A DNA stretch of 64,000 nt. Source: a virus. The stretch's first letter is position 1, and each line of letters starts with the position of its first letter. The notes below the pieces were generated by a model. The model was not told where the DNA came from, searched no databases, and saw nothing but the letters and a program-made list of their open reading frames with translations. Below, piece by piece: positions 33,555-62,642 of the stretch. The translations under genes and the position numbers were made by a program. The DNA is taken from positions 1 to 64,000 of the IMG/VR virus record IMGVR_UViG_3300023301_000006; one strand, given 5' to 3'.

Positions 33555-33995
33555 ATGTCCTTGAGTAAAAGTCTCTTATATAAAGACATAACTAATCAAG
33601 TAAGGGGTAACTTTAAAGTATTGAAACTAAAAGGGATAGAACACGGAGAGTATTATATTCCAATCCACAAAGGAGCGGTAAAAACAGGAATGAAAATTCC
33701 TCGTGAGAACTTAAAAAGAGCAAGTCTTATTTATCAAGTAGGAGATGTAGTTAGAATAAAAACTAAAGAGCAGTTTGCAAGGGATTTCAAAATAAACTAC
33801 TCAGAACAAGAAAGAGAATTTTATGTTAGAACCTCAAATACATTTTCAGTTAGTATGAATGTTTACTGTGGTAGAGAATTTGTCATTGTTGGATACACGC
33901 GTGAGAGGGGGTATATGCTAAAAGACATCCCTTTCTTTAGTTTTGACTCAGATATGTTTGTAGCAAATAGGTGTTTTCTGTATAAAGAAATATAA
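33555..33995 (+). CDS. Family A small protein (copy near the tRNA side)
   Basis: 146 residues. Shares with the array at 52691-58237 the core V-G-D-V-V-R-I-K-T-K-E-Q-F, a M-N-x-x-C-G-R-E-F segment, F-D-S-D-M and the ending F-L-Y-K-E-I. The SH3-like spacing suggests a small beta-barrel; function unknown. It is alone here, 19 kb from its relatives and on the opposite strand. Confidence 0.65.
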   Translation: MSLSKSLLYKDITNQVRGNFKVLKLKGIEHGEYYIPIHKGAVKTGMKIPRENLKRASLIYQVGDVVRIKTKEQFARDFKINYSEQEREFYVRTSNTFSVSMNVYCGREFVIVGYTRERGYMLKDIPFFSFDSDMFVANRCFLYKEI

Positions 33996-41758: not shown

Positions 41759-42091
41759 ATGATGATTTTGCGAAGTTTTTTATTCGAGAGAGACATAACA
41801 ATTATTAGACCAGAGAGTAAGAAACAAGCCGAAGAACTAATGTTGGAGCTAAGCAGGAATGGTATTCGTTGGAATGGCGGTCGTTCGTTATTAGATGAAA
41901 TGCACCTCCATACACGAAATAGGGAGTTCGCGTATTTACTCCAAAAATCTAGTGAAGGAGTATACTCTCTTACTCGTGGGTATTATTGGGGTTACCTTGA
42001 AGATATGAAAAAATATAAAAGATATCCTAGTGGTTCTATATACTCTTATACCAACGTTGTGGTAGGTAGCTTCATTTATAGTGTTATATAG
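41759..42091 (+). CDS. Family B small protein
   Basis: 110 residues. Shares the family B core A-E-E-L-M-L-E-L-S-R-N-G-I-R-W-N-G-G with the array at 50729-58846 (L-S-x-E-L-x-x-x-G-Y-x-W-x-S-G). It ends F-I-Y-S-V-I. Function unknown. One of two forward-strand copies that lie far from the main array. Confidence 0.6.
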   Translation: MMILRSFLFERDITIIRPESKKQAEELMLELSRNGIRWNGGRSLLDEMHLHTRNREFAYLLQKSSEGVYSLTRGYYWGYLEDMKKYKRYPSGSIYSYTNVVVGSFIYSVI

Positions 42092-42104: not shown

Positions 42105-42467
42105 ATGCAAAAATTAAAAAAATTTAAACTTGACAAAAACGAAAGCTTTGTTGTTCACGTTATTGATGAAGAACAAGGGGAAGTCTTATTACGCATTTTA
42201 GACTCCATGGGATTTAAGTGGAGTGGAGGATTCTCCTTATTAGAAGAGACACATTATAAAGATAAGTCAAGTATCGCTTACGAGATACAGGAAGGAGAAG
42301 GCAATTTTGTGGTCTACTATTCTTCATTAGGGTTTTATGAAAGATACTACGAAGTTAATTGTAAAAAGTACACACATGCTCTTGAAAATCCAGTAAGATT
42401 AGAAGCATACAAAATTTATTCATTCGAAGATGCGATTTCAAGAGACAGTATATATCAAATTATATAA
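42105..42467 (+). CDS. Family B small protein
   Basis: 120 residues from the ATG at 42105, which follows GGGAGGT. Core L-R-I-L-D-S-M-G-F-K-W-S-G-G-F; ends S-I-Y-Q-I-I. Second gene of the pair with 41759. Confidence 0.6.
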   Translation: MQKLKKFKLDKNESFVVHVIDEEQGEVLLRILDSMGFKWSGGFSLLEETHYKDKSSIAYEIQEGEGNFVVYYSSLGFYERYYEVNCKKYTHALENPVRLEAYKIYSFEDAISRDSIYQII

Positions 42468-42809: not shown

Positions 42810-42838
42810 TTGAAATTTTGTCCATAATGTTATATAAT
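42810..42838 (+). promoter_or_regulatory. Promoter of the operon 42881-45014
   Basis: TTGAAA, 17 bases, TATAAT. Confidence 0.7.
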
Positions 42839-42880
42839 ATATATAGAAGATAAAAAAAAGAAAAACTAAGGAGGAAGATT

Positions 42881-45099: not shown

Positions 45100-45136
45100 A
45101 CAAAAAAAATAAGACCCAAGTTTCTAGGTCTTAGAG
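45100..45136 (-). terminator. Terminator of the reverse-strand operon
   Basis: On the reverse strand AAGACC/GGGTCTT hairpin followed by a T run, just past the stop at 45140. Confidence 0.8.
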
Positions 45137-45139
45137 GAA

Positions 45140-50728: not shown

Positions 50729-51046
50729 TTAAATTTCTTTGTACAAATACTCTATATTCTTTAAATCAGCAATCTCATAAATTTCTTCATTAGAACGAAC
50801 TTCTTTCATTTCGAGATAAGTGTTTACACTTCCATAGTTTACCATTTTAGTGTTGTATCTATTAGTATAAATTCTATAACATAAATCTCTAGTATACATA
50901 TTCCAACGGTTGTTTATTAAAGGCTCCTGGCAAAATGAAATGTACCCTAATCTATCAAGTTCTTTGCACAGTTCTCTTTCGTCTTCGCCATTTCGGACTC
51001 TTACTATCGTTGTTTGTCCATTTAGGATTTCCTCATTTATTATCAC
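50729..51046 (-). CDS. Family B small protein
   Basis: 105 residues with E-L-C-K-E-L-D-R-L-G-Y (family B core with the following W-S-G diverged) and a Y-L-Y-K-E-I ending. First gene after the promoter at 51087. Confidence 0.55.
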   Translation of the reverse strand: MIINEEILNGQTTIVRVRNGEDERELCKELDRLGYISFCQEPLINNRWNMYTRDLCYRIYTNRYNTKMVNYGSVNTYLEMKEVRSNEEIYEIADLKNIEYLYKEI

Positions 51047-51086
51047 ACCTAACTCCTCCTTTTTTTTCTTTTTCTCTTATATTAAT

Positions 51087-51115
51087 ATTATATCACTTTT
51101 TAGATATTTCTGCAA
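51087..51115 (-). promoter_or_regulatory. Promoter of the family B/phosphoesterase/nadR operon
   Basis: TTGCAG, 17 bases, TATAAT, extended -10. Confidence 0.7.
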
Positions 51116-51141
51116 TAAAAAAATGCAGTTTTTACGCTGTA

Positions 51142-51810
51142 CTATGCTTGTTGATTCATTTTGTTCCAATTATATAAACCATACACTGAATTTACTAAAT
51201 AAGCAATCCACATAACCAACACAGAAATATCAGTTCCACCATTACTCAACGCATAAATCCAAAGGCATATGGAAGCCACATTAACGCCTATCCATAACAC
51301 CCATTGTTCTACATAACGCATCACCATTAAAATCATTGCTATAATAGATAGAATAGTTGATATTGAATCAAAGTAAGGCATATTACCACCAAGAGAAGCC
51401 AACCATTGCCCATAAAATAAAATGGCTACAATTGCAATTACGAACCAAGTAAAACGTTGTTTTTGAGTCATAATTTTAGTTTTAACTTCTTTGACTTTTG
51501 AATTCATATATTTTCGCCACAATAGAATACCAACAAATTGCATTGGTAAGAAAAATATTAGGTTTAACATCACTTCTCCGTAAAATTTCCATGAATAAGC
51601 CACCCAAGCATATGCTAATACGTTAACAATACCAACGTAGTAATTAGATATTTTACCTTTGGCTGCTAAAACTACACACCATATACCAGTTAAAGATGCA
51701 GTTACTCCAATCAGACCATCTCCCCAATAAAGGGATAATGATAATATTAATAGGGTAGATACCCCCAACCATATTTTTTCAAACGTCTTCCAATCATTAA
51801 AGTAATTCAT
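51142..51810 (-). CDS. pnuC: PnuC nicotinamide riboside transporter
   Basis: 222 residues, seven hydrophobic segments. Family features: G-K-I-S-N-Y-Y-V-G-I-V-N-V near segment 3, F-Y-G-E-V-M-L-N-L, and the C-terminal S-V-Y-G-L-Y-N-W. It would bring nicotinamide riboside into the cell by facilitated diffusion, with phosphorylation by NadR trapping it. It is the last gene of the upstream transcript; nadR follows 1.1 kb further on, behind a new promoter. Confidence 0.85.
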   Translation of the reverse strand: MNYFNDWKTFEKIWLGVSTLLILSLSLYWGDGLIGVTASLTGIWCVVLAAKGKISNYYVGIVNVLAYAWVAYSWKFYGEVMLNLIFFLPMQFVGILLWRKYMNSKVKEVKTKIMTQKQRFTWFVIAIVAILFYGQWLASLGGNMPYFDSISTILSIIAMILMVMRYVEQWVLWIGVNVASICLWIYALSNGGTDISVLVMWIAYLVNSVYGLYNWNKMNQQA

Positions 51811-51818
51811 AATTCCTC

Positions 51819-52118
51819 CTATACTTCTTTATATAATGGACAGTCATCTTTTATTTCTTCATATTTGTATAAGAATACGCGAGAATTGTTGTTTGCCTCC
51901 TTTATTGAAGATTTGTAGATTGATTTTGATGGAGGCTTGGGTATTTCATATATTATACCTTTTTCTTTCTCATCAAAGTACTTCAAATCAATTAAAGTTG
52001 AACCACTCTTCCATCTATAACCATTCTTGTGTAGTTCTTTAGACAACTCATTTATTTGGTCTTTATTTGTGAGTATGACTCTAAGACCTTGGCTCAATAG
52101 TTCTTGCCTTATTTTCAT
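51819..52118 (-). CDS. Family B small protein
   Basis: 99 residues: L-S-K-E-L-H-K-N-G-Y-R-W-K-S-G, ends P-L-Y-K-E-V. GGGGAGG ribosome site lies in the 3' end of the upstream gene. Confidence 0.65.
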   Translation of the reverse strand: MKIRQELLSQGLRVILTNKDQINELSKELHKNGYRWKSGSTLIDLKYFDEKEKGIIYEIPKPPSKSIYKSSIKEANNNSRVFLYKYEEIKDDCPLYKEV

Positions 52119-52119
52119 T

Positions 52120-52398
52120 TTATACCTCCCCGTATATTGGTTTTAATAGTGAAATGGCATCTATTTCAATTATCTTATAATTTTGACGATAGTGACTAAT
52201 AAAGCTATCTGCTTCTCAGGAAGAACTGGTCTCCCAAATATATCCTTCCCCCATCAAAAATAATGTACTATGCTCAATAGTGCGAAGTGACTTTACCAAT
52301 GGACCATCGAAACTCCAGCGGAGTTTTTTGTCAATTGCATATGACTCAAACAACTTAAGTATTTCTTTAGTTCTTATTGATACCACATAGTAATTCAC
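52120..52398 (-). CDS. Family C small protein, with one TGA codon
   Basis: 92 residues. GTG start at 52398, six bases after AAGGAGG; TGA at 52216 read as Trp (S-S-S-W-E-A-D). Aligns end to end with the products at 56388 and 56674 (I-R-x-K ... I-I-E-I-D-A-I-S-L-L-K-P-I-Y-G-E-V). Under the standard code it would be called truncated. Confidence 0.65.
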
Positions 52399-52399
52399 T

Positions 52400-52687
52400 T
52401 TATACCTCCTTATATAAAAAGATTGCTTCCCATATGTCCTCAAAGTTTAGTGTGATATCATCTTTTATGTCCAAATTTTCAATTTTATCATATGACACAC
52501 GAAGTTTATCTAAACGGACTTTATAATATAAAGGATACATATATTCAGGAGGAAGCCACTCTGGCAAAAAATCCCCATCTTGCCAACGGTAACCTAACTT
52601 ATTCAATGCTTTACTTACATCAATTACATCTGGTTGATTTTCTAATATAACGCAAAATTCATCTGGTAATCCTTTTCTCAATATCAT
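52400..52687 (-). CDS. Family B small protein
   Basis: 95 residues: V-S-K-A-L-N-K-L-G-Y-R-W-Q-D-G, W-L-P-P-E-Y; closest to the copy at 55101. Ends F-L-Y-K-E-V, coded by TATAAGGAGGTATAA, which is also the ribosome site of the next gene. Confidence 0.65.
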   Translation of the reverse strand: MILRKGLPDEFCVILENQPDVIDVSKALNKLGYRWQDGDFLPEWLPPEYMYPLYYKVRLDKLRVSYDKIENLDIKDDITLNFEDIWEAIFLYKEV

Positions 52688-52690
52688 ATT

Positions 52691-53104
52691 TTACACCTCC
52701 TGGTATAGATGGAATGGTCTAACTAACATATCAGAATGAAAAGAATAGCCAGTCTCTCCGTCTAGGTTGTATAAGTCATTTTGCTTTCTTGTTATTTCAA
52801 AAGTTTTTCCGCAGAACTTATTCATCTCTGCCGAAAAACCGTATCGAACGTCACTTATCTCAAATTCCCCCTGTAGATGATGGGTAGGGTTAATTAGAAA
52901 GTGTTTTTCAAACTCCTTTTTGGTTTTTACCCTTACTATGTCCCCAACTCTATAGACAGGAGAATATAGTTCTAAACTATCTGGTTTGAACGTAAAATCG
53001 AGTCTCTTTCTCTTGAGAAATGGTCGATTGTCGTTAACCTGAAAAGCCATTCCTTTGTGGGTTCCATCTTTCGTTGTATGTAACACATCCATTGCAATTC
53101 CCAT
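52691..53104 (-). CDS. Family A small protein
   Basis: 137 residues: V-G-D-I-V-R-V-K-T-K-K-E-F, M-N-K-F-C-G-K-T-F, F-H-S-D-M-L, ends H-L-Y-Q-E-V. First gene behind the promoter at 53153. Confidence 0.65.
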   Translation of the reverse strand: MGIAMDVLHTTKDGTHKGMAFQVNDNRPFLKRKRLDFTFKPDSLELYSPVYRVGDIVRVKTKKEFEKHFLINPTHHLQGEFEISDVRYGFSAEMNKFCGKTFEITRKQNDLYNLDGETGYSFHSDMLVRPFHLYQEV

Positions 53105-53152
53105 AAATTCACCCCTTTAAAATTTTATTTTTTATTTCTTTCTTATACTTAT

Positions 53153-53181
53153 ATTATATCACTTTTTAAGAAAACTTACAA
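53153..53181 (-). promoter_or_regulatory. Promoter
   Basis: TTGTAA, 17 bases, TATAAT, then the shared ATAAGTATAAGAAAG leader. Confidence 0.75.
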
Positions 53182-53182
53182 C

Positions 53183-53213
53183 AAAAAAAAGTAGAAAAAT
53201 AAATTCTACTCTG
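53183..53213 (-). terminator. Terminator inside the paralogue array
   Basis: AGTAGAATTTATTTTTCTACT hairpin-type sequence followed by eight T on the reverse strand. Nearly the same element occurs at 59092. Confidence 0.7.
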
Positions 53214-53222
53214 GATTTCATA

Positions 53223-53306
53223 CTAATTAAACATTATAACTAACATGATTATGATAAACGCTCCCCCAACTAAAGTCAATAAGAATGTGATTAGTAAATC
53301 TCCCAT
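53223..53306 (-). CDS. Tiny membrane protein
   Basis: 27 residues, one hydrophobic helix (L-L-I-T-F-L-L-T-L-V-G-G-A-F), AGGAGGAG ribosome site. Paired with the next small membrane protein. Confidence 0.5.
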   Translation of the reverse strand: MGDLLITFLLTLVGGAFIIIMLVIMFN

Positions 53307-53315
53307 AATCTCCTC

Positions 53316-53513
53316 CTAGCCTATTAAAATTGTACCAATGACGAAACTAAAACAAATTACAACAAAGGTTAAGTACCATACAAAAGGTTCGTCTTTTCGT
53401 TCATTTATGCCAAATGCGACCAATTCTGCAACAAGAAATACTATTGTTACTGTAATTACAATTACTAGTATGCCAGTAAGGAGCCTTGTAAAAAGACCAA
53501 TCATTGCTTCCAT
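53316..53513 (-). CDS. Small membrane protein
   Basis: 65 residues with two membrane helices (about 8-33 and 43-63). AGGAGG ribosome site in the 3' end of the family B gene upstream. Function unknown. Confidence 0.55.
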   Translation of the reverse strand: MEAMIGLFTRLLTGILVIVITVTIVFLVAELVAFGINERKDEPFVWYLTFVVICFSFVIGTILIG

Positions 53514-53515
53514 AA

Positions 53516-53815
53516 TTAAACCTCCTCATATAAAAAATTTTTATCTAAGATTTCTTCAAAACTAAAAATGTCATAACCCTTCCTAAGATAAACACAAACA
53601 GAAGCTTGATACACTTCTTTTTCTCCACCAAATGGCTTAACACGGTAAGCACGATTTCCCCCCGTTAAACCGAAGTAATTTAATTCCCTTAAGTCTTGTC
53701 CCATAGCCCAACTGTAGCCAATGCGATTTAACTCCATTGAAAGCTCATCAATTTGTTTCATCGTTCTTACTTTTACTACAAATCCTGTATCTAGTAACTT
53801 TCTCTTTATTTTCAA
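53516..53815 (-). CDS. Family B small protein
   Basis: 99 residues: L-S-M-E-L-N-R-I-G-Y-S-W-A-M-G, L-N-Y-F-G-L; ends F-L-Y-E-E-V, coded by the downstream ribosome site GAGGAGG. Confidence 0.65.
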   Translation of the reverse strand: MKIKRKLLDTGFVVKVRTMKQIDELSMELNRIGYSWAMGQDLRELNYFGLTGGNRAYRVKPFGGEKEVYQASVCVYLRKGYDIFSFEEILDKNFLYEEV

Positions 53816-53818
53816 TGT

Positions 53819-54268
53819 TTACACCTCCTTGAAGATGATTGGGATTTTAGTCAACATGTCTGCATCGAAAAGGTGGTAGGCGGTTTCATCATTAGCGTAG
53901 TCTTTACACTCATCTAGAATGTACACACCTTCTTCTTCAATACTTTTTATCTTAAAGATTTTACCACTAAGCTTATTCATATTTGTAGAAAAATAACACC
54001 TAGTTGTTACAAAAAAGCCATCAGAGAATGGGGATTTTTCAACTCTAAAATATCTACTAAATTCTTCTTTGGTCTTAACCCCAACTATTTCTCCAATTCT
54101 AAACTTAGGACTATAAGGTGTTAAATTACTCTCTTTAATAATTATTGAGGTGTCTATCTCACCTAAGTAGCACGGAAAAAAAAGACCCTCACTCAAAGAA
54201 CACAATTGAAAACCACCTTTAATACTGTTGTCTTTAGTACTGTATAGTCGTGTCGTTATTATTTTCAT
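53819..54268 (-). CDS. Family A small protein
   Basis: 149 residues: I-G-E-I-V-G-V-K-T-K-E-E-F, M-N-K-L-S-G-K-I-F, F-D-A-D-M-L, ends I-I-F-K-E-V, coded by AAGGAGGTG. Confidence 0.65.
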   Translation of the reverse strand: MKIITTRLYSTKDNSIKGGFQLCSLSEGLFFPCYLGEIDTSIIIKESNLTPYSPKFRIGEIVGVKTKEEFSRYFRVEKSPFSDGFFVTTRCYFSTNMNKLSGKIFKIKSIEEEGVYILDECKDYANDETAYHLFDADMLTKIPIIFKEV

Positions 54269-54270
54269 TT

Positions 54271-54699
54271 CTACACCTCCTTGTATATAATATTGTGTAA
54301 CTTGACAAGCATGTCTGAATCAAAATAAAACCCCATTCCATTTACTAATCTAAAAGTACCATCACTGGTTTTATGACTTATCTCATATTCTTTTCCACAA
54401 AATTCATTCATGTCTTGTTGAAAATTAGAACAAGTAATTACCCTAAATCCCCATGGTTGGTCATTTAAGATTGTAAAGTCTTTTTCAAATTCTCTTTTAG
54501 TCTTAACTCTAACCGTTTCTCCAATTCTAAATCTAGGAGCAGTCAACTTAATGACAGATGAATCATCAATGTGAATATTAAAGTAGGAACCTTTTTGGAA
54601 AATCTCATATCTATTACCATTTCTTATTGACTTGATAAAGAAATTTCCTTTTATAGTTCCATCAGTTGTTTTATATAGAGTTTCTTTTTTAAAGTCCAT
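54271..54699 (-). CDS. Family A small protein
   Basis: 142 residues: I-G-E-T-V-R-V-K-T-K-R-E-F, M-N-E-F-C-G-K-E-Y, F-D-S-D-M-L, ends I-I-Y-K-E-V, again coded by the next ribosome site. Confidence 0.65.
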   Translation of the reverse strand: MDFKKETLYKTTDGTIKGNFFIKSIRNGNRYEIFQKGSYFNIHIDDSSVIKLTAPRFRIGETVRVKTKREFEKDFTILNDQPWGFRVITCSNFQQDMNEFCGKEYEISHKTSDGTFRLVNGMGFYFDSDMLVKLHNIIYKEV

Positions 54700-55098
54700 T
54701 TATACCTCCTCGTAAATACTTAATACATTAACCAACATATCAGCGTGAAAGTAAAACCCTCCATTTTCCTCTGATAAATAAGTGTCAGAAGTGTCATCTT
54801 CTTTTCTAACCCTAAAAATCTTTCCACTATATTTGCTCATCGCCTCAAAAAACATAATAGATGCACCATGTACGGAAAATAAATTGTCATACTTACTTTC
54901 TTTAATTAAAAAATGTTTACTGAATTGCTCTTTAGTTTTTATTGCAACTAACGTCCCACTCCTAAAATTAGGAGAATACTTTCTTACTCCCTCTTTCTTT
55001 GGATTAAAATTAAGAAACTCACCTTTTAAAAAAGCTTCACCCCCTTGAAGTTTAAAAACTTCTCCTTCTTTAGTGATATACAGTACATATTCCTCCAT
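54700..55098 (-). CDS. Family A small protein
   Basis: 132 residues: S-G-T-L-V-A-I-K-T-K-E-Q-F, M-S-K-Y-S-G-K-I-F, F-H-A-D-M-L, ends S-I-Y-E-E-V. Its stop directly abuts the next ATG. Confidence 0.65.
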   Translation of the reverse strand: MEEYVLYITKEGEVFKLQGGEAFLKGEFLNFNPKKEGVRKYSPNFRSGTLVAIKTKEQFSKHFLIKESKYDNLFSVHGASIMFFEAMSKYSGKIFRVRKEDDTSDTYLSEENGGFYFHADMLVNVLSIYEEV

Positions 55099-55100
55099 CT

Positions 55101-55391
55101 TTAAACCTCCTTATAGATTACATTTTCTTCCCAAATGTCTTTAAACTTATAAGACCCCTTCCAAGAAGGTGTGTAATCAGATAGTTCGCTATATGTTATC
55201 CTGGCAAGGTCTATATGAATTTCATAATAAACAGGGAAAAAGGATTCTGGTGGAAACCAGTCTAGAGGGGCGTCACCCTCTTGCCACTTATATCCAATCG
55301 TATCTAATTCCTTAGAGATTTGAATGGCTTCTGATTTATCCATTACTTTAACAATAAATCCTCTTTCCAATAATATTTTCTTTATAAACAT
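55101..55391 (-). CDS. Family B small protein
   Basis: 96 residues: I-S-K-E-L-D-T-I-G-Y-K-W-Q-E-G, W-F-P-P-E-S; ends V-I-Y-K-E-V. Sister of the copy at 52400. Confidence 0.65.
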   Translation of the reverse strand: MFIKKILLERGFIVKVMDKSEAIQISKELDTIGYKWQEGDAPLDWFPPESFFPVYYEIHIDLARITYSELSDYTPSWKGSYKFKDIWEENVIYKEV

Positions 55392-55403
55392 GTTCTACCT
55401 CCT

Positions 55404-55829
55404 TTAGATTTCTGAATATATTTCATTGTTTTCTGCGAACATTTCTCTAGAGAACACATACGAGCCAACACCTTTTAAATCATATGAATTTATTGAAGGG
55501 TTAGCGTGGATTATAGTATACGTTTTACCACAGAATTTATTCATGACTTCTGAGAACAAACGTGGAACTCTAGCTCTAAAGTTAGATTGGCTCCCTACAA
55601 CAAGATTACTATGATTTTTTTTAAACTCTTGAAACGTTTTTATTCTAATCCTACTTCCTTTTCTGAATTGGTTTATCCTATATACATCAAAAGTTTCTCT
55701 CAGTTGACTCTCTGAGTAGACTTTGCCTTCCACAGTTCCTCCCCCTACTACTCTTCTGTGTTTCTCAATGATAGATATTACTCCAGTTTTCTTATGTATC
55801 AATTGACTCCCTCTTTCTATTAAATCCAT
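55404..55829 (-). CDS. Family A small protein
   Basis: 141 residues: G-S-R-I-R-I-K-T-F-Q-E-F, M-N-K-F-C-G-K-T-Y, F-S-R-E-M-F, ends E-I-Y-S-E-I. Closely related to its neighbour at 55858, so a tandem duplication. Confidence 0.65.
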   Translation of the reverse strand: MDLIERGSQLIHKKTGVISIIEKHRRVVGGGTVEGKVYSESQLRETFDVYRINQFRKGSRIRIKTFQEFKKNHSNLVVGSQSNFRARVPRLFSEVMNKFCGKTYTIIHANPSINSYDLKGVGSYVFSREMFAENNEIYSEI

Positions 55830-55857
55830 CTATTCTCACTTCCTCTCCAAATATTCT

Positions 55858-56292
55858 TTAGATTTCTGAATATATTTCATCGTTCTCTGCAAACATTTCT
55901 CTAGAAAACCCATACGAATTAATACCGTCCAACTCATATAAATTCCATTCAGGTGTGGAGTGAACTATAGTATACGTTTTGCCACAGAATCTATTCATTT
56001 CTACTGAAAATGAACGGGGAACCTTAACTCTGAAGGGAGGTTGGTTTCCTAGAACAAGACCCTTATGACTCCTTTTAAACTCTTGAAATGTTTTTATTCT
56101 AACTCTGTCCCCCTCCTTAAATTGATGTATTCTATATCCCTCAAAAGTTTCTTTTAGTTGACTCTCTGATAGGTAGTTACCCCCCACTAAATAAGCTATA
56201 GTTCCATTGTCTCTTCTTACGTTTCCTTCATTAACAAATACTTCTTTGGTTTTTATAGATACTAATTGGCATCCTCTGTTCGTAAGACTCAT
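55858..56292 (-). CDS. Family A small protein
   Basis: 144 residues: G-D-R-V-R-I-K-T-F-Q-E-F, M-N-R-F-C-G-K-T-Y, F-S-R-E-M-F, ends E-I-Y-S-E-I. First gene behind the promoter at 56338. Confidence 0.65.
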   Translation of the reverse strand: MSLTNRGCQLVSIKTKEVFVNEGNVRRDNGTIAYLVGGNYLSESQLKETFEGYRIHQFKEGDRVRIKTFQEFKRSHKGLVLGNQPPFRVKVPRSFSVEMNRFCGKTYTIVHSTPEWNLYELDGINSYGFSREMFAENDEIYSEI

Positions 56293-56337
56293 TTATTTCC
56301 ACTCCTTTATATTTTTTATTTCTTTTCTTATACTTAT

Positions 56338-56366
56338 ATTATATCAGAAAATGAATAAAATTACAA
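56338..56366 (-). promoter_or_regulatory. Promoter
   Basis: TTGTAA, 17 bases, TATAAT, shared ATAAGTATAAG leader. Confidence 0.75.
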
Positions 56367-56369
56367 GAA

Positions 56370-56394
56370 AAAAATGTAGCTTTCAAGCTACACC
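56370..56394 (-). terminator. Terminator overlapping the end of the gene at 56388
   Basis: TGTAGCTTGAAAGCTACA hairpin and seven T. The stop codon TAG of the gene is inside the stem. Confidence 0.8.
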
Positions 56395-56669
56395 TCTTTG
56401 TAAATTGGTGAGAGTAAATCAATTGCGTTAATTATTTGAAAATTACTTGGATTCTTTTCTTGTTGAATGTATCCATCATTAACTGCTACATCAATCGTCC
56501 AGAAGTCTTGCTCACCCATCAAGATAATCTCAGTTCTTCTTCCCATAAGTATTTTGAAATCAGAGTCTATATTATCATTATTATAAAAAAGATTATTAGT
56601 CTGTGCGTAGTGATATACTATTTCTATATCAGTTTTATTTCTTATTCGGATTATTGTGTAGTCCTTCAT
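56388..56669 (-). CDS. Family C small protein
   Basis: 93 residues: Y-T-I-I-R-I-R-N-K-T-D-I-E, F-W-T-I-D-V-A, I-I-N-A-I-D-L-L-S-P-I-Y-K-E-V. Very similar to the next copy upstream (56674), so a recent tandem duplication. Confidence 0.65.
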   Translation of the reverse strand: MKDYTIIRIRNKTDIEIVYHYAQTNNLFYNNDNIDSDFKILMGRRTEIILMGEQDFWTIDVAVNDGYIQQEKNPSNFQIINAIDLLSPIYKEV

Positions 56670-56673
56670 ATTA

Positions 56674-56955
56674 TTACACCTCTTTATAAAATCCTAAGGG
56701 CAAGTCAATTGCGTCAATTACTTGAAAATTGTCAAGATTCATTTTTTGTTGGCGATATCCATCTCTCAGTGCTATATCAACCGTCCAGAAGTCTGTCCCA
56801 TCTATCAAGATAATTTCAGTTTCTCTTCTCATAAGTATTTTGAAATCAGAGTCTATTTTATTCTTATTATAAAGAAGATTATTTGCAAGTGCATAGGAGT
56901 ATATTAACATTATGTCAATTTCACTTTTTACTCGGATTATCGTATATTTTTTCAC
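56674..56955 (-). CDS. Family C small protein
   Basis: 93 residues, GTG start after AAGGAGG. F-W-T-V-D-I-A, V-I-D-A-I-D-L-P-L-G-F-Y-K-E-V. Duplicate of 56388. Confidence 0.65.
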   Translation of the reverse strand: MKKYTIIRVKSEIDIMLIYSYALANNLLYNKNKIDSDFKILMRRETEIILIDGTDFWTVDIALRDGYRQQKMNLDNFQVIDAIDLPLGFYKEV

Positions 56956-56959
56956 GTTA

Positions 56960-57217
56960 CTATACCTCCTTGAATATCACTTCAAACATGGTTTCTCTTA
57001 TGTCTATTGTTTCATAAGTGAAACCCATAGATTGTAGAGCTTTTAATTCCTTGTTGTAATCTACGCCAAAACTAACCCGATTCCATACACTTATACACCC
57101 CACTTGTGCCCTTGAGGGTATATCAGAAGAATAATTGTGAATTCCTGCTGACCTTAAGTACTCTGGGAAATGTCTACGATTAAATCCAATTCTAAAATCT
57201 ATTACTTTATAATCCAT
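56960..57217 (-). CDS. Small hypothetical protein with the common tail
   Basis: 85 residues, unrelated core (V-I-D-F-R-I-G-F-N-R-R-H-F), yet ends V-I-F-K-E-V coded by AAGGAGGT. Part of the array. Confidence 0.55.
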   Translation of the reverse strand: MDYKVIDFRIGFNRRHFPEYLRSAGIHNYSSDIPSRAQVGCISVWNRVSFGVDYNKELKALQSMGFTYETIDIRETMFEVIFKEV

Positions 57218-57218
57218 A

Positions 57219-57494
57219 CTACACCTCCTTGTAAATGTAAATAAAATCTTTTATATATTTAATGCCTAACTCTTTCACTTCATTTCCTCTTTTTTTCTCA
57301 TATCCAAGAGAATCATCATAGTTCTCCACAAGCCAGATAGAGTTATTTTCTATTATTACTCCTTGACAAGGGTAATTAATTAGTGCGTTTTCGTTTCCTG
57401 CGTGTTCTCAGACGTAATCCTTTACTTTTGAAAAAATATAGAACATGTGTTTCTCAGAAAGATTAGTTAATCTAATTAAATCTATGGAACTCAT
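57219..57494 (-). CDS. Small hypothetical protein with TGA codon and common tail
   Basis: 91 residues, starts S-S-I-D-L-I-R-L-T-N-L, TGA at 57408 read as Trp (D-Y-V-W-E-H-A), ends I-Y-I-Y-K-E-V then TAG. Missed under the standard code. Stop and next ATG are one base apart. Confidence 0.6.
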
Positions 57495-57496
57495 AA

Positions 57497-57787
57497 TTAC
57501 ACCTCCTGATATAATGGAAAAGTGTCTAGAACTTCTATAAAATCATAAACTCGATTACCCTGTCTTTTATAATAAGAAACGGGACATTTTGTTACTAATT
57601 TAGAACTACGTATGTGGTAGGCAATATCCCTTTCTGCTCCTTCAAAGTAGTTAAGTTTTTCTAAGTCTCGTCCACTTTCCCATTGACAACCATCGTCACT
57701 TAACATTTTTGAAAGCATTCTGGTTTCATCGAGAGTTCGTAATCTTACTACAAATCCATTTTCTAATAAATCTCTTCTTATTTTCAA
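57497..57787 (-). CDS. Family B small protein
   Basis: 96 residues: L-S-K-M-L-S-D-D-G-C-Q-W-E-S-G, L-N-Y-F-E-G; ends P-L-Y-Q-E-V. Confidence 0.65.
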   Translation of the reverse strand: MKIRRDLLENGFVVRLRTLDETRMLSKMLSDDGCQWESGRDLEKLNYFEGAERDIAYHIRSSKLVTKCPVSYYKRQGNRVYDFIEVLDTFPLYQEV

Positions 57788-57790
57788 AAA

Positions 57791-58237
57791 TTACACCTCC
57801 TTGTACGTTTTATCAACGGGTCCAATTAACATATCTGCGTCAAAGCTATAAGGACTTCCTTCAAGACGATAAGTCCCATCAAAAGTAACAGTAGACACTT
57901 TAAATTTTTTGCCACAATGGTCATTCATACTGGGTAAAAAACCCTTTTTTGTATCAACTAAGAATCCACTGAATTCATCTTCTGGGAATCCCTCAACGAC
58001 TGTAAAATTCCTTTTAAACTGCGATTTAGTTTTTACCCACACTATATCTCCGACAGAGAATCGAGGAGAGTCGAGAATTAGCTCCTCTTCTTTAAGAATA
58101 ACATCAAAATCCGTAACTCCTTTATAGATAGGGTGATATACGGGGTTGTGATTACAAGATGAAGCAGGTCTAGTGGTAAATCCACCTTTGATTCTATTCC
58201 CCTTTGTCTTGTAAAGTACACATTGACATTCTATCAT
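57791..58237 (-). CDS. Family A small protein
   Basis: 148 residues from the ATG at 58237, which follows GAGGAGGTG; the longer frame lacks a ribosome site. V-G-D-I-V-W-V-K-T-K-S-Q-F, M-N-D-H-C-G-K-K-F, F-D-A-D-M-L, ends K-T-Y-K-E-V. Confidence 0.65.
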   Translation of the reverse strand: MIECQCVLYKTKGNRIKGGFTTRPASSCNHNPVYHPIYKGVTDFDVILKEEELILDSPRFSVGDIVWVKTKSQFKRNFTVVEGFPEDEFSGFLVDTKKGFLPSMNDHCGKKFKVSTVTFDGTYRLEGSPYSFDADMLIGPVDKTYKEV

Positions 58238-58239
58238 AT

Positions 58240-58542
58240 CTACACCTCCTCGTATAAGAATTTGCATACGTAAATTTCTTTATAATTATAAACAACAAGT
58301 CCTTGTTCTTCATATGTCACAGCACTATTGTATGACACAAACCCACCTTTCCAGCCAGGTTCCATACTATACGCCAAGGTACCTAGGGACATTCCGAAGA
58401 AGTTATGTTGTATTAAATTTCTACCTGACCACCACCTATAATCAAGAGAATCAAGTACTATTGAGAGTTCTCTAACTTCTTCCAACGTTTCTAACTTAAC
58501 TACAAATCCTTCGTCGAGTAACTTCTGTCTTATTTCCTTCAT
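58240..58542 (-). CDS. Family B small protein
   Basis: 100 residues from the ATG at 58542 after AAGGAGGT. L-S-I-V-L-D-S-L-D-Y-R-W-W-S-G; ends F-L-Y-E-E-V. Tandem sister of 58547. Confidence 0.65.
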   Translation of the reverse strand: MKEIRQKLLDEGFVVKLETLEEVRELSIVLDSLDYRWWSGRNLIQHNFFGMSLGTLAYSMEPGWKGGFVSYNSAVTYEEQGLVVYNYKEIYVCKFLYEEV

Positions 58543-58546
58543 AGTA

Positions 58547-58846
58547 TTATACCTCCTTGTACAAAAAACTTTCCTCAAGAATTTCTTCATATTCGCAAAA
58601 AATCTTCCCCGTTTTTCTACAAGACTCAGAGTTAGTAAATCCTACGTAATGGCTTCCAGAATAAGGCTCTATTACGTATACTAAATCTCCTCTTTCTCTT
58701 GGACTAGGAGTAAAGGTCACTAGACTTTCATTTGACCACCATTTGTAGTTAAGAAGGTCAAGTAATATTGAAAGTTCTTTGATTTCTTTCAACGTTTTTA
58801 GCTTAACTCTAAATCCTTCTTCGAGTAATTCCTGTTTTATTCTCAT
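58547..58846 (-). CDS. Family B small protein
   Basis: 99 residues: L-S-I-L-L-D-L-L-N-Y-K-W-W-S-N; ends F-L-Y-K-E-V coded by AAGGAGGTA. Overlaps the previous stop by one base. Confidence 0.65.
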   Translation of the reverse strand: MRIKQELLEEGFRVKLKTLKEIKELSILLDLLNYKWWSNESLVTFTPSPRERGDLVYVIEPYSGSHYVGFTNSESCRKTGKIFCEYEEILEESFLYKEV

Positions 58847-59019
58847 TACATACCAGCTTCTTTCATTAGCTCCTTTTCGTAGGCGTCAGAAGCTTCAATA
58901 GATTCAATGTTCCCTTCTAGTGCATCTCTGTACTCTCTTTCGTTAATTGCGTCCATTCCTTCGTGCTCCATAGCTTCTACTAGTTGGCATTGGTCTTCAT
59001 ATCTGTTAATGATTGTCAT
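58846..59019 (-). CDS. Small acidic protein
   Basis: 57 residues (M-T-I-I-N-R-Y-E-D-Q-C-Q-L-V-E-A), helical and acidic; AGGAGTGAGATA ribosome site. First gene behind the promoter at 59063. Function unknown. Confidence 0.55.
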   Translation of the reverse strand: MTIINRYEDQCQLVEAMEHEGMDAINEREYRDALEGNIESIEASDAYEKELMKEAGM

Positions 59020-59062
59020 ATTATCTCACTCCTTTTTATTTTTTATTTCTTTCTATACTTAT

Positions 59063-59091
59063 ATTATATCAAAATACGAACAAAATTACAA
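59063..59091 (-). promoter_or_regulatory. Promoter
   Basis: TTGTAA, 17 bases, TATAAT, shared ATAAGTATAGAAAG leader. Confidence 0.75.
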
Positions 59092-59126
59092 CAAAAAAAA
59101 GTAGAAAATTAATTCTACTCTATTCG
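59092..59126 (-). terminator. Terminator
   Basis: AGTAGAATTAATTTTCTAC hairpin followed by eight T; near copy of the one at 53183. Confidence 0.7.
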
Positions 59127-59345
59127 TTCTAAAAGTATCTTACTAGACTTTCTAAGAACATCATTTGATTCTTTACTGTCTGGTTTAAAACCAAGATTAT
59201 GTTCAATGTAGTCTTGAGCTTCCTCAATATATTTCGCCATAGTCATCATCTTTCTTGTTGGATTCCCAGTTCTTAAAACATCAAAATCTTCTTCTGACAT
59301 GAATGAATCTATACTACTTATGAACTTATTTAAATTTTTACTCAT
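59115..59345 (-). CDS. Small hypothetical helical protein
   Basis: 76 residues, helical, ends R-K-S-S-K-I-L-L-E-R-I-E inside the terminator stem. AGGAGGTG ribosome site overlaps the stop of the tiny membrane protein upstream. Confidence 0.55.
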   Translation of the reverse strand: MSKNLNKFISSIDSFMSEEDFDVLRTGNPTRKMMTMAKYIEEAQDYIEHNLGFKPDSKESNDVLRKSSKILLERIE

Positions 59346-59357
59346 ACTAACACCTCC

Positions 59358-59438
59358 TTACATAAGTAAATACCCTAAGACGAACACAAATCCCATAATA
59401 AAACACATGAATAACAATACAATAATTAGTTTATTCAT
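59358..59438 (-). CDS. Tiny membrane protein
   Basis: 26 residues, one hydrophobic helix (L-I-I-V-L-L-F-M-C-F-I-M-G-F-V-F-V), AGGAGG ribosome site. Function unknown. Confidence 0.5.
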   Translation of the reverse strand: MNKLIIVLLFMCFIMGFVFVLGYLLM

Positions 59439-59450
59439 ATTATTTACCTC

Positions 59451-59753
59451 CTAGTTTAAAGTTCTTCTTAAAATTTCCCAGTACTCTAATGTGATAACTT
59501 TTTCCACAAACTCATAATCCACTTTACCTAGTGCAAAGCCAGCTATCATTCCATCTAAATATGTGTCTAAGTTTAAATGGTTGGTATCTGCATAATCAAC
59601 TATTGAATTTGTTTCTGTGTTTACTATCGCAAAGGTTTGCCCATCACTATTGTATATGTCATCAAATCTTATGTCCCCAAAATTCATGTCCATACTGGTA
59701 AAATATGACATCACTTGCGGGTCCACGATGTAATATTTCTCAATTATTAACAT
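59451..59753 (-). CDS. Small hypothetical protein
   Basis: 100 residues, mixed alpha/beta (I-V-D-P-Q-V-M-S-Y-F-T ... V-E-K-V-I-T-L-E-Y-W). Resembles short phage proteins of the DUF type; no assignment. Confidence 0.5.
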   Translation of the reverse strand: MLIIEKYYIVDPQVMSYFTSMDMNFGDIRFDDIYNSDGQTFAIVNTETNSIVDYADTNHLNLDTYLDGMIAGFALGKVDYEFVEKVITLEYWEILRRTLN

Positions 59754-59754
59754 A

Positions 59755-60150
59755 TTACTCGCCTCCTTCTGGGTCTTCTATTTTATAAGTAGTGACTGGG
59801 GTGATTTTAAGTGATTGAATAAAAACACATGAGGTTTCAGCAAATCCACGAATACTATCTTCTTCTTCTTCTTCGACTTTGCTAAAGTCAAACATCTCAC
59901 ACTCTGAAAACTCAAAGTAAGGTGTATTGACGATTGCCCCAAGAACATCATTCTTGTCTGTTAAACACACTGGAACGCAACGTACTTCACTGTGTTTGCC
60001 ATCTAAATCACTCATCATCCATTCATCTCTTAATATATCAAACAATTCTTCAGCCTTATCTCTGCGGCACAATATTCCTTCAAATTTTATTGCTCCTGAG
60101 TACCACCCTTTTCCACGAAACCCCACATAAGCTAAATTCTCTAATTTCAT
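59755..60150 (-). CDS. Small hypothetical protein
   Basis: 131 residues with an acidic low-complexity stretch (V-E-E-E-E-E-D-S) and an acidic, Gly-containing tail (E-D-P-E-G-G-E) coded by the next ribosome site. No family recognised. Confidence 0.5.
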   Translation of the reverse strand: MKLENLAYVGFRGKGWYSGAIKFEGILCRRDKAEELFDILRDEWMMSDLDGKHSEVRCVPVCLTDKNDVLGAIVNTPYFEFSECEMFDFSKVEEEEEDSIRGFAETSCVFIQSLKITPVTTYKIEDPEGGE

Positions 60151-60152
60151 AA

Positions 60153-60296
60153 TTACAATACCCCCTTAGGCTTATAGTCCTTACAATTACTCACATCTGG
60201 GATTCTAAGAGATAAATCTAAATCCCAATGACCTTCAAAACACGCCATACCATCTTTCTTCATATTCTTGCAACCGTTACATTTTAATTGCTTCAT
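60153..60296 (-). CDS. Small zinc-binding protein
   Basis: 47 residues: L-K-C-N-G-C-K-N-M, later A-C-F and N-C-K-D-Y, four Cys positioned for one zinc site. Start overlaps the upstream stop (TAATG). Confidence 0.55.
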   Translation of the reverse strand: MKQLKCNGCKNMKKDGMACFEGHWDLDLSLRIPDVSNCKDYKPKGVL

Positions 60297-60739
60297 TATG
60301 CCTCCTCGTAATACGCGTAGTCTAATAATTCAAAGTTTTTTAACGTCTTTACTACTTCAGAAGTTTCAAGACCAAGACTGTGAAATGTAATAACTAGTCC
60401 ATGGTACAGAACCTTATAGTCACAAATTACGAACTTACCGTCATACTTAGCATATACTTTCGCCCCTGACCTAATGTTTTCCATAGCAGTCTTAAAATCA
60501 ATTTCTTCATACTTCTTATTCTCTAGTAACTCTAATTGATTTTCTTTTGCGTACAATACATTATAAATTAATCCACCTCTCTTTGAATGAATGATAATTC
60601 TAGGGTATACTTCTACAAAATCTGCTTCACGAGAGTCAATATCCAACATATCACAATAATCTGCCCACACTTCCCATGGAAAATCACTCTTGAGAATAGT
60701 AAATACTCCATTTCTCTTACTTTTACGAATATTATCCAT
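60296..60739 (-). CDS. Hypothetical protein of the array region
   Basis: 147 residues. Contains F-K-T-A-M-E-N-I-R-S-G-A-K-V-Y-A-K-Y-D-G-K-F, similar in layout to the product at 61063 (F-K-E-A-F-L-K-I). Ends Y-A-Y-Y-E-E-A, coded over GAGGAGG, the same ribosome-site tail trick as the array. Confidence 0.55.
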   Translation of the reverse strand: MDNIRKSKRNGVFTILKSDFPWEVWADYCDMLDIDSREADFVEVYPRIIIHSKRGGLIYNVLYAKENQLELLENKKYEEIDFKTAMENIRSGAKVYAKYDGKFVICDYKVLYHGLVITFHSLGLETSEVVKTLKNFELLDYAYYEEA

Positions 60740-60763
60740 TTGACACCTACTTCCTTTTTATAA

Positions 60764-61042
60764 TTATAATTTACTATCTCTAAATGCAAGTTCAGGGGAG
60801 AAGAATTCTTCATATCTCTTTTTCCCCATCAATTGAGATACTCTCACTGGTTTAGTGTTAGACTTCAAAGAGTCAAATTTTACCGCAAACCCACCCAATT
60901 CTATTCTATCTGGGGCGTTATAGCAACTTCCCTCTTTCTCAGGTTCTTCCATAGAAACCATTGCACAGTTGTGAGTTTTCCATACCCATTCGTATCTGTC
61001 TTTTAGCAATTTTAGTAACAGATATTCATTTTTAGTTAGCAT
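60764..61042 (-). CDS. Small hypothetical protein
   Basis: 92 residues; N-terminal M-L-T-K-N-E-Y-L-L-L-K-L-L-K-D-R-Y-E-W and a Gly-rich middle. Ribosome site AGGAGG. No family recognised. Confidence 0.5.
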   Translation of the reverse strand: MLTKNEYLLLKLLKDRYEWVWKTHNCAMVSMEEPEKEGSCYNAPDRIELGGFAVKFDSLKSNTKPVRVSQLMGKKRYEEFFSPELAFRDSKL

Positions 61043-61062
61043 ATTAATCCTCCTTTTTTCCG

Positions 61063-61740
61063 TTATATTACCTCCTTGTAAAACGTATGGTCGGATAAAT
61101 CACAAAAATTATAAATTTTATCACTCCCCAAGCACTTCACAGGTGCATATCTATCGTATTTACACATATAAACCCTAACTAACTCAACCCCCACACCATC
61201 TTCTTTTATAAATACATTGCTTTCTTTAGATAAATACTCACTTTCTGAAATTTTTAAAAAGGCTTCTTTAAAACTTATTTGTTTATACTCTTTGGCTTTT
61301 TTAAATGCTATGTTGCCTTTTAGCAACCCGATTAACACACTTAGTTCATTGACCTCTTTTAGAGGTATTGACTCAGTACCAAAGCTAATACTGGAATATA
61401 TTCTATCATCACCTACCCACCAGTCGTAATCTGAGTATTTGTGGTCTAACAACTTTATTCTTCCGCCACACTCTATTCCATTGTCTAATCTGAATTGCTC
61501 AACATAGTTTTTTCTCATTACCTCCTCAATTATTTCTGTCCAAGTATCAACAGCCCCTACAATTGTGCCATCAGGATATGATATTTCAAAGTAGAGCATG
61601 CCAGACGAAAACGGCATAGAGTGTTTTACTTTAGATATAGTGCCTATTTTTCCCTCAAACTCTCGCATTTCCTTGTTGAATAATTCCTTTTCTTCGTCTA
61701 ATACGATTTTTACTTTTCTACCTACTAATACTTCTTTCAT
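61063..61740 (-). CDS. Hypothetical protein ending in the common tail
   Basis: 225 residues from the ATG at 61740; the ATG at 61749 lies within the ribosome site. The N-terminal part (L-V-G-R-K-V-K-I-V ... G-K-I-G-T-I-S) looks like a KOW/SH3-type barrel. The C-terminus ends F-Y-K-E-V-I, coded by AAGGAGGTA. Confidence 0.55.
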   Translation of the reverse strand: MKEVLVGRKVKIVLDEEKELFNKEMREFEGKIGTISKVKHSMPFSSGMLYFEISYPDGTIVGAVDTWTEIIEEVMRKNYVEQFRLDNGIECGGRIKLLDHKYSDYDWWVGDDRIYSSISFGTESIPLKEVNELSVLIGLLKGNIAFKKAKEYKQISFKEAFLKISESEYLSKESNVFIKEDGVGVELVRVYMCKYDRYAPVKCLGSDKIYNFCDLSDHTFYKEVI

Positions 61741-61759
61741 AGTATTCATCTCCTATTCA

Positions 61760-61908
61760 TTAAACAAGTATTCTGTAGTTACAATGACCACAGAAGATTA
61801 CTTCATTATAGTCCCATAGTGATGTGTCATCATATTGTATTAAGCTACCACAGTGTCTACAGGTCACCGTTTTTATTAAGCGTATGTGGTTAAAACCTTT
61901 ACTGTCAT
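61760..61908 (-). pseudogene. Zinc-ribbon ORF with a disturbed start
   Basis: AAAAGGAGG and an ATG at 61908 open a frame that stops after ten codons. The shifted frame then reads V-T-C-R-H-C-G-S-L and F-C-G-H-C-N-Y-R-I-L-V to TAA at 61760, a clear zinc ribbon without its own ribosome site. Either a one-base indel or a frameshifted gene. Confidence 0.45.
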
Positions 61909-61930
61909 GATATTTCCTCCTTTTGTAAGA

Positions 61931-62167
61931 TTAACAATCCTTATATATTATATTTAATTTTGTTCTTACATAATAGTTATAGTGAAATAATTGAAACATT
62001 TGGATTCCATAGGTAGTAGAATCGTTTATTTCAAAAAGAAGGTATTCGTCAAACGTCTCGCTATACTTTACCACATATTTTTCCTCACGGTACTCAACAA
62101 AAGTTTCCAACCCATGGTTTAACCTTTCAAACATTTCTCTTGACGGTATTTTATGGTATTCAGTCAT
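61931..62167 (-). CDS. Small hypothetical protein
   Basis: 78 residues (M-T-E-Y-H-K-I-P-S-R-E-M-F-E-R-L-N), ends N-I-I-Y-K-D-C. Pattern P-S-R-E-M-F and V-E-Y-R-E-E-K-Y-V-V-K-Y resembles the C-terminal part of the 60296 product. AGGAGG ribosome site; first gene behind the promoter at 62201. Confidence 0.5.
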   Translation of the reverse strand: MTEYHKIPSREMFERLNHGLETFVEYREEKYVVKYSETFDEYLLFEINDSTTYGIQMFQLFHYNYYVRTKLNIIYKDC

Positions 62168-62460: not shown

Positions 62461-62520
62461 AGAGAAAACGCCACTCCCCATAAACCCTTCTATAGCCTCA
62501 TCTATTGGGGTTTCAATAAT

Positions 62521-62625
62521 TAGTTAAACGGAAAATATAACTAGTTAAACGGAAAATATAACTAGTTAAACGGAAAATATAACTAGTTAAACGGAAAATA
62601 TAACTAGTTAAACGGAAAATATAAC
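62521..62625. repeat. Five 21-bp iterons
   Basis: Five perfect head-to-tail copies of a 21-base unit (TAGTTAAACG then GAAAATATAA then C) beginning at 62521, 62542, 62563, 62584 and 62605, with a degenerate sixth (TTATTCGGAAAAC). A 21-base period is two helical turns, as in Rep-binding iterons. Confidence 0.92.
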
Positions 62626-62642
62626 TTATTCGGAAAACGCAC

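What the first reader, a model, noticed from the sequence alone, without database searches (positions are those of the whole stretch)
50729..62167. Tandem array of small paralogues whose C-terminal tail is the next gene's ribosome site
About 20 short proteins of at least three unrelated families (A: V-x-V-K-T-K-x-E-F; B: L-x-x-G-Y-x-W-x-S-G; C: I-D-A-I-D-L) end in the same Y-K-E-V-like tail. In most, the tail codons are TAC/TAT-AAG-GAG-GTG-TAA, that is, the Shine-Dalgarno sequence of the following gene. Some (33995, 51046, 51819) keep the tail with other codons and a separate ribosome site, so the peptide may matter too. The layout would let genes duplicate and shuffle as self-contained cassettes. 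Arrays like this often hold anti-defence proteins.
Basis: partly seen in the sequence, partly recalled or inferred. Interest (0 to 1): 0.7.

Follow-up and report, generated by a model that had tools for sequence, protein, structure and literature searches.

The report
Shared protein tail doubling as ribosome site
A bacteriophage carries about two dozen small proteins, built on at least two different folds, that all end in the same five-residue tail; the tail is kept even where it is not needed as the next gene's ribosome-binding site, so it is probably a real recognition tag, although nobody yet knows what recognises it.

Summary
Twenty-three small genes of families A, B, C and D end in [I/L]-[Y/F]-x-E-[V/I]-stop; three more carry degenerate forms. 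Of 85 other genes in this phage, none ends this way. Where the next start codon lies within 6 nt, the tail codons contain GGAGG (15 of 16). Where it lies further away, they never do (0 of 9), yet the peptide persists with other codons (Fisher p = 5e-6). Two divergent family-B genes outside the array, one with its own downstream ribosome site and one with no close downstream gene, still end in IYSVI and IYQII. Among the four family-B genes without the ribosome codons (20-31% identical), the tail is the best-conserved 5-residue window of the protein. AlphaFold leaves the tail disordered in both main folds. SD packing alone therefore does not explain it: the peptide is selected, and its codons switch to serve as a ribosome site. 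I infer a C-terminal docking or sorting tag; the partner is unknown. Anti-defence function is untested. Relatives found in other phages lack the tail. Separately, this phage reads UGA as tryptophan, so two seemingly broken array genes are intact.

The parts
33555..33995 (+). Family A (Mib-SH3-like) lone copy; tail LYKEI with non-SD codons CTG TAT AAA GAA ATA; next start 214 nt away
41759..42091 (+). Divergent family B member outside the array; tail IYSVI, non-SD codons; own SD for the next gene lies after the stop
42105..42467 (+). Divergent family B member outside the array; tail IYQII, non-SD codons; next start 75 nt away
50729..51046 (-). Family B; tail LYKEI, non-SD codons, separate SD for 50714
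51819..52118 (-). Family B; tail LYKEV, non-SD codons TAT AAA GAA GTA; separate SD overlaps the stop
52120..52398 (-). Family C (weak alignment, 31% to 56388); one in-frame TGA (Trp in this phage); tail IYGEV with SD codons
52400..52687 (-). Family B; tail LYKEV with SD codons
52691..53104 (-). Family A; tail LYQEV with SD codons
53516..53815 (-). Family B; tail LYEEV with SD codons
53819..54268 (-). Family A; tail IFKEV with SD codons (Phe for Tyr)
54271..54699 (-). Family A; tail IYKEV with SD codons; folded (model m8d6c460380ae), residues 136-142 pLDDT <50
54700..55098 (-). Family A; tail IYEEV with SD codons
55101..55391 (-). Family B; tail IYKEV with SD codons
55404..55829 (-). Family A; tail IYSEI, non-SD codons TAT TCA GAA ATC; separate SD after the stop; tandem duplicate of 55858
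55858..56292 (-). Family A; tail IYSEI, non-SD codons
56388..56669 (-). Family C; tail IYKEV; next start 95 nt away; tail codons lie inside a terminator-like hairpin 56399-56368
56674..56955 (-). Family C; tail FYKEV with partial SD (GAGGTG); tandem duplicate of 56388, unit 286 nt
56960..57217 (-). Family D; tail IFKEV with SD codons
57219..57494 (-). Tentatively family D (28% to 56960); one in-frame TGA (Trp in this phage); tail IYKEV with SD codons
57497..57787 (-). Family B; tail LYQEV with SD codons
57791..58237 (-). Family A; tail TYKEV with SD codons
58240..58542 (-). Family B; tail LYEEV with SD codons
58547..58846 (-). Family B; tail LYKEV with SD codons; folded (model m21b444cb2587), residues 94-99 pLDDT <50
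60296..60739 (-). Unrelated protein with degenerate tail YYEEA overlapping the SD of the next gene
61063..61740 (-). Unrelated protein with tail FYKEV followed by one extra residue (I)
61931..62167 (-). Unrelated protein with degenerate tail IYKDC, no SD role
59063..59091 (-). Repeated extended -10 promoter (TTGTAA-17-TATAAT with TG) heading a sub-operon; near-identical copies at 56366-56338 and 53181-53153, a variant at 62229-62201 and a related copy near 51068-51133

Best explanation
The tail is a C-terminal short linear peptide, [I/L]-[Y/F]-x-E-[V/I]-COOH, selected as a peptide and attached to small phage proteins of at least two folds (family A, a Mib/SH3-like barrel; family B, a small alpha/beta domain of the GYxWxSG type) plus families C and D. 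In the packed array the codons for its last three residues have also been recruited as the Shine-Dalgarno sequence of the next gene (AAG-GAG-GTG); where no start codon follows closely, the same peptide is written with other codons. The layout makes each gene a transferable unit: the upstream tail brings the SD, the gene brings its own tail. Shown here: the motif, its codon switch, its conservation without an SD role, its lack of predicted structure, and tandem duplications bounded at the tail. Inferred: that a common partner reads the tail (a docking or sorting tag), and that the variable domains are fast-evolving early host-takeover proteins. The partner, and whether it is a virion component, a protease or a phage hub protein, are not known.
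For: GGAGG occurs in the tail codons of 15 of 16 genes with a start <=6 nt downstream and 0 of 9 others, while the peptide is kept in both groups (Fisher p = 4.9e-6). In four family-B genes without SD codons, at 20-31% pairwise identity, no other 5-column window is as conserved as the tail (0 of 70), and Tyr is identical in all ten B members. At the Tyr codon the third base is free (TAT 11, TAC 10), and Phe replaces Tyr twice, so the constraint is on the residue, and it lies upstream of the SD. Val becomes Ile only where no SD is needed. Two B members outside the array keep IYSVI and IYQII. The lone A gene at 33555 keeps LYKEI with no gene close downstream. Tail pLDDT is <50 in both A and B models, outside otherwise modelled domains. 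In other phages only 1 of 100 SD-overlapped gene ends has aromatic-x-E/D-V/I/L. Co-transcribed neighbours such as PnuC, NadR and a membrane protein lack the tail. Units duplicated tail to tail are seen at 56389/56675 and 55402/55856.
Against: Only one phage genome carries the array; G001 is the same phage and L011 does not reach it. No partner was found. The two distant relatives located in other phages lack the tail, so it is lineage-specific. Some non-SD tails are paralogues of SD-type tails, so they are not fully independent events, and in family A alone the tail is not the top window (6 of 86 windows as good). Low pLDDT from an 8-sequence alignment is weak evidence of disorder.
Confidence: 0.6

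Rival explanations
1. By-product only: the tail is nothing but the Shine-Dalgarno sequence read in the upstream frame. Gene packing forces K-E-V and the peptide has no function.
For: Most array tails contain GGAGG and the next start follows by 0-4 nt. SD overlap with the upstream coding end is common in prokaryotes (PMC2784483). In other phages 66 of 100 SD-overlapped ends use this frame.
Against: Nine carriers have no SD role and still carry the tail. Tyr/Phe and Ile/Leu lie upstream of the SD yet are the most constant residues. Only 1 of 100 SD-overlapped ends elsewhere gives aromatic-x-E/D-V/I/L.
Confidence: 0.1
2. The tail is specifically a virion-packaging signal: early proteins are loaded into the head by a common terminal peptide and delivered with the DNA, as the T4 internal proteins are through their N-terminal capsid targeting sequence.
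For: T-even internal proteins are diverse defence-countering proteins that share only the capsid targeting sequence (PMC3012670; a 10-residue N-terminal CTS is described in PMC10229621). T4 IPI begins MKTFKEF, superficially like T-F/Y-K-E-V.
Against: The tail here is C-terminal; no head or scaffold genes were identified in this 72-kb contig, so nothing could be tested; a 4-residue likeness is weak; the array has early-type promoters.
Confidence: 0.15
3. The tail is a degron or a protease-adaptor docking peptide that gives the early proteins rapid turnover or couples their targets to a host AAA protease.
For: Short C-terminal hydrophobic peptides are classic signals of this type (general knowledge); the tail is flexible in the models.
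Against: It does not resemble the ssrA-type (LAA) or MuA-type C-termini known to me; no stability data.
Confidence: 0.12
4. The tail is structural: a last strand or clasp of each fold, conserved for stability, inherited from a very distant common ancestor of families A and B.
For: hhalign A against B scores higher with tails (67.5%) than without (12.5%, E 0.0023), so a distant link is not excluded.
Against: Both models leave the tail unpacked. The folds differ: A matches Mind bomb Mib repeats at Z 8.1 (rmsd 2.7, 73 aligned) and B does not. C and D show no profile link to A.
Confidence: 0.13
5. The tail is a recombination scar: a short DNA segment at every gene joint that serves as homology for shuffling cassettes, so it spreads with recombination.
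For: Two tandem duplications have units bounded at the tail.
Against: Codon third positions at the Ile/Leu and Tyr codons are nearly free, so the DNA itself is not conserved there; non-SD carriers share the peptide but not the DNA.
Confidence: 0.1

Closest known systems
T4 internal proteins IPI-IPIII with the capsid targeting sequence (CTS)
   Same: Diverse small phage proteins with little else in common share one short terminal peptide (PMC3012670, PMC10229621).
   Different: The CTS is N-terminal, about 10 residues, and cleaved by gp21; here the peptide is C-terminal, five residues, doubles as an SD, and no packaging is shown.
Overlap of Shine-Dalgarno sequences with upstream coding ends / translational coupling
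   Same: AAGGAGGTG inside the last codons of the upstream gene drives the next start (PMC2784483, PMC12548453).
   Different: Here the peptide is also kept in genes where no SD is needed.
Mind bomb repeat (Mib/SH3-like) domain, PDB 4tse / 4xi6, and phage proteins annotated 'Mind bomb SH3 repeat domain'
   Same: The family A core (residues 54-135) has this fold (Z 8.1, rmsd 2.7, 73 aligned).
   Different: A has an extra unmodelled N-terminal part and the tail; sequence identity is only 16%.
Small uncharacterised phage proteins with a GYxWxG-type domain (e.g. D4N4K7 of Leuconostoc phage 1-A4, Foldseek prob 1.00)
   Same: Same predicted fold as family B; 81 aa with QGYDWLNG.
   Different: The Leuconostoc protein does not end in the tail; the others were not read.

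Membership tests
T4-type capsid-targeted internal proteins | Shared short terminal peptide on otherwise diverse proteins | tested here: met
   23 genes of four families share it
T4-type capsid-targeted internal proteins | Peptide is N-terminal and cleaved by the prohead protease | tested here: not met
   The peptide is at the C-terminus in every carrier; cleavage not testable
T4-type capsid-targeted internal proteins | Proteins are found in the virion | not testable with these tools
   needs virion proteomics
SD/upstream-gene overlap (translational coupling) | SD within the upstream coding end, start codon 0-10 nt after the stop | tested here: met
   15 of 16 close pairs
SD/upstream-gene overlap (translational coupling) | C-terminal residues explained by the SD alone | tested here: not met
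   tail kept in 9 carriers without SD codons; Tyr and Ile/Leu lie upstream of the SD
Mib/SH3-like repeat (family A core) | Mib repeat fold | tested here: met
   4tse_A Z 8.1, rmsd 2.7, 73 aligned, above the next unrelated fold at 6.4
Mib/SH3-like repeat (family A core) | Sequence match to a Pfam family | tested here: inconclusive
   no Pfam hit above the cut-off
Anti-defence protein array | Members match known anti-defence families or inhibit a defence system | not tested
   no anti-defence library was available; PADLOC and NCBIfam gave no meaningful hits for array members

The most novel reading that the evidence does not exclude
A previously undescribed C-terminal sorting or docking tag of phages: one five-residue peptide that routes two dozen early proteins of different folds to one partner, and whose codons have been co-opted as the ribosome site of the next cassette, so that one 15-nt joint encodes both protein addressing and translation of the next gene.
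Probability: 0.45. Interest if true: 0.8.

Novelty: new variant of a known kind. Interest (0 to 1): 0.58.

Why it matters
If the tail is a tag, it offers a simple handle (a five-residue peptide) for fishing out a shared partner of a whole set of uncharacterised early phage proteins, and for recognising such sets in other genomes. It is also a clear case of dual coding, where the same amino acids are kept while the codons switch between ribosome-site and non-ribosome-site versions according to what follows. The code-4 finding matters for anyone annotating this phage, because standard calls break replication, lysis and array genes at UGA.

Tried and rejected
No relatives of the array families were found by tblastn in 50,697 phage records (one weak hit at E 0.9) or plasmids, nor by back-translated patterns in IMG/VR or GTDB contigs, apart from the same phage. 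The only related contigs are the same phage (G001/L010, 99.9% identical over 18.9 kb) and an 89% relative that does not reach the array (L011). A scan of IMG/VR for the exact DNA joint gave 83 stretches, none with more than two tails, so no second array was found. PHROGs, Pfam, NCBIfam and PADLOC gave nothing meaningful for array members, and solved-structure sequence searches for A and B found nothing convincing. Foldseek/VIA listed no solved fold for B beyond Z 2.8. The two in-frame TGAs were first taken for pseudogene stops; rejected, because TGA is a conserved sense codon in this phage and aligns with Trp. The UCA-anticodon tRNA candidate was considered as the decoder, but its long variable arm and G73 look Ser/Sec-like while the aligned residues are Trp, so it is left unexplained.
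Full report
What is there. The window is the first 64 kb of a 72,423-base IMG/VR virus contig, probably a large phage of Bacilli. Its replication genes match SPbeta-like phages, with the same order of AAA ATPase, a small protein, helicase, primase and RecJ. From about 62.2 to 50.7 kb on the minus strand lies a series of short genes heading towards NAD-salvage genes (PnuC 51142, NadR 48990). I called genes with their ribosome sites and listed the C-termini.

The observation. Eight family-A, ten family-B, three family-C and two family-D genes end in [I/L]-[Y/F]-x-E-[V/I]. The exceptions are one T and one F at the first position, and V or I for E in the two divergent B genes. Assignment of 52120 to family C and 57219 to family D rests on weak alignments (31% and 28% identity). 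Three further genes have degenerate forms. Two of the ten B genes (41759, 42105) were not in the finding; the B profile finds them at E 7e-7 and 2.5e-8. None of 85 other confidently called genes of this phage ends in hydrophobic-aromatic-x-x-V/I/L.

SD by-product or peptide? In 15 of 16 carriers whose next start lies within 6 nt, the tail codons contain GGAGG; in all nine others they do not (p = 4.9e-6). The 25 genes of this table are the 23 of families A-D plus the degenerate E and F. In those nine the peptide is still there: LYKEI, IYSEI (twice, one duplication), LYKEI, LYKEV, IYSVI, IYQII, IYKEV and IYKDC. The most constant positions, Tyr/Phe and Ile/Leu, lie upstream of the SD. The third codon base is free at Tyr (11 TAT, 10 TAC), and Phe replaces Tyr twice, so the constraint acts on the residue. 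Val turns to Ile only where no SD is needed, as expected if the SD demands G and the peptide accepts either. Among four B genes without SD codons, 20-31% identical, no other 5-column window scores as high as the tail (0 of 70); in family A the tail is among the best but not the top (6 of 86). Across 862 kb of other phage DNA, 1 of 100 SD-overlapped gene ends has aromatic-x-E/D-V/I/L, against 11 of 19 here (sites used to select those contigs were left out). Peptide-level selection is therefore well supported; a packing by-product alone is not.

What carries the tail. AlphaFold models from the 8-member alignments give a confident A core at residues 54-135 and a fair B domain. In both, the last six or seven residues are below pLDDT 50. 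The A core matches the Mind bomb Mib repeat (4tse, Z 8.1, rmsd 2.7, 73 aligned), and several phage hits are annotated as such. B matches small uncharacterised phage proteins, and the second look at solved structures listed nothing beyond Z 2.8. A and B show at most a faint profile link without their tails (12.5%). Two relatives elsewhere lack the tail: the A-like protein of Bacillus phage vB_BcoS-136 (profile E 1.2e-5) and the B-like 81-residue protein of Leuconostoc phage 1-A4 (assignment by length and GYDWLNG motif). The tail thus looks like a lineage-specific addition.

Layout. Near-identical extended -10 promoters stand before the sub-operons at 59.1, 56.4 and 53.2 kb, with variants at 62.2 and about 51.1 kb and relatives before the lone A gene and the two outside B genes. 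Two tandem duplications (286-nt and 454-nt spacing) have units that begin within 2 nt of the stop codon ending the tail, which fits cassette duplication.

Mechanism. Shown: a conserved C-terminal peptide, predicted flexible, on different folds, written with SD codons when the next gene abuts and with other codons when it does not. Inferred: a common partner reads the peptide. Candidate roles are virion loading (compare the N-terminal capsid targeting sequence of T4 internal proteins, PMC3012670, PMC10229621), turnover by a protease, or docking on a phage hub; no data here choose between them. The anti-defence idea is plausible by position only and was not tested.

Genetic code. The phage reads UGA as tryptophan. 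An 89%-identical relative keeps an in-frame TGA at 27000 with the downstream frame under purifying selection (substitutions 4/2/20 by codon position, no indels). Most of the table-11 'TGA ends' run on into open coding sequence. Pfam domains span TGAs in the AAA_24, DNA pol III alpha, DHH and RecJ_OB matches. In alignments to SPbeta-like phages the TGA falls on Trp in the AAA ATPase, helicase, primase and polymerase, on Tyr/Phe at one RecJ site, and on non-conserved residues at others. So the array genes at 52120 and 57219 are intact. TGA use is lower in the array (2 TGA, 48 TGG) than in 0-33 kb (22, 77; p = 0.004), which would fit early expression before the code change takes effect, an inference.

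Limits. One genome, no partner, no experiment. Public relatives with the array were sought and not found (see Tried and rejected).

Noticed in passing
window 538-30439, 45131-46453, 52120-52398, 57219-57494 and others: UGA is a sense codon (Trp) in this phage: conserved in-frame TGA in relative L011 with purifying selection downstream; Pfam domains span TGAs; TGA aligns with Trp in four SPbeta-like replication proteins. Standard gene calls are truncated.
   Followed up: yes
window 39324-39417 (+): Candidate tRNA with UCA anticodon, long variable arm and G at the discriminator position, next to the tRNA cluster; below Rfam cut-off (24 bits against tRNA-Sec). A possible UGA decoder, but it looks Ser/Sec-like while the aligned residues are Trp.
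   Followed up: partly
window 36500-36727 (+), start further left not determined: ROOL RNA (Rfam RF03087, 127 bits, cut at the 5' end of the stretch searched) beside the tRNA cluster.
   Followed up: no
window 36746-36814 (+): tmRNA-like match (44.8 bits, just under the 47-bit cut-off) between the ROOL RNA and the tRNA cluster.
   Followed up: no
window 38616-38690 (+): tRNA-Gly (UCC) missed by the default tRNA scan, found by Rfam at 57.8 bits.
   Followed up: no
window 24380-26755 (-): DnaB-type helicase interrupted by a LAGLIDADG intein.
   Followed up: no
window 62516-62626 and 62691-63410 (+): 21-nt iterons in tandem just before a Rep_3-type initiator gene, as in plasmids.
   Followed up: no
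window 33470-42868: Many short intergenic copies of a strong promoter-like repeat (TTGACA-like ... TGATATAATATAAGTATAG), several in tandem at 35.3-35.7 kb.
   Followed up: no
window 56368-56399 (-): A terminator-like hairpin whose 5' arm includes the tail codons of gene 56388, so here the tail codons take part in a different RNA element.
   Followed up: no
window 61741-61930 (-): Downstream of 61931 an open frame with a CxxC...CxxC zinc-ribbon pattern lacks an obvious start in its own frame; possible frameshift or assembly error.
   Followed up: no
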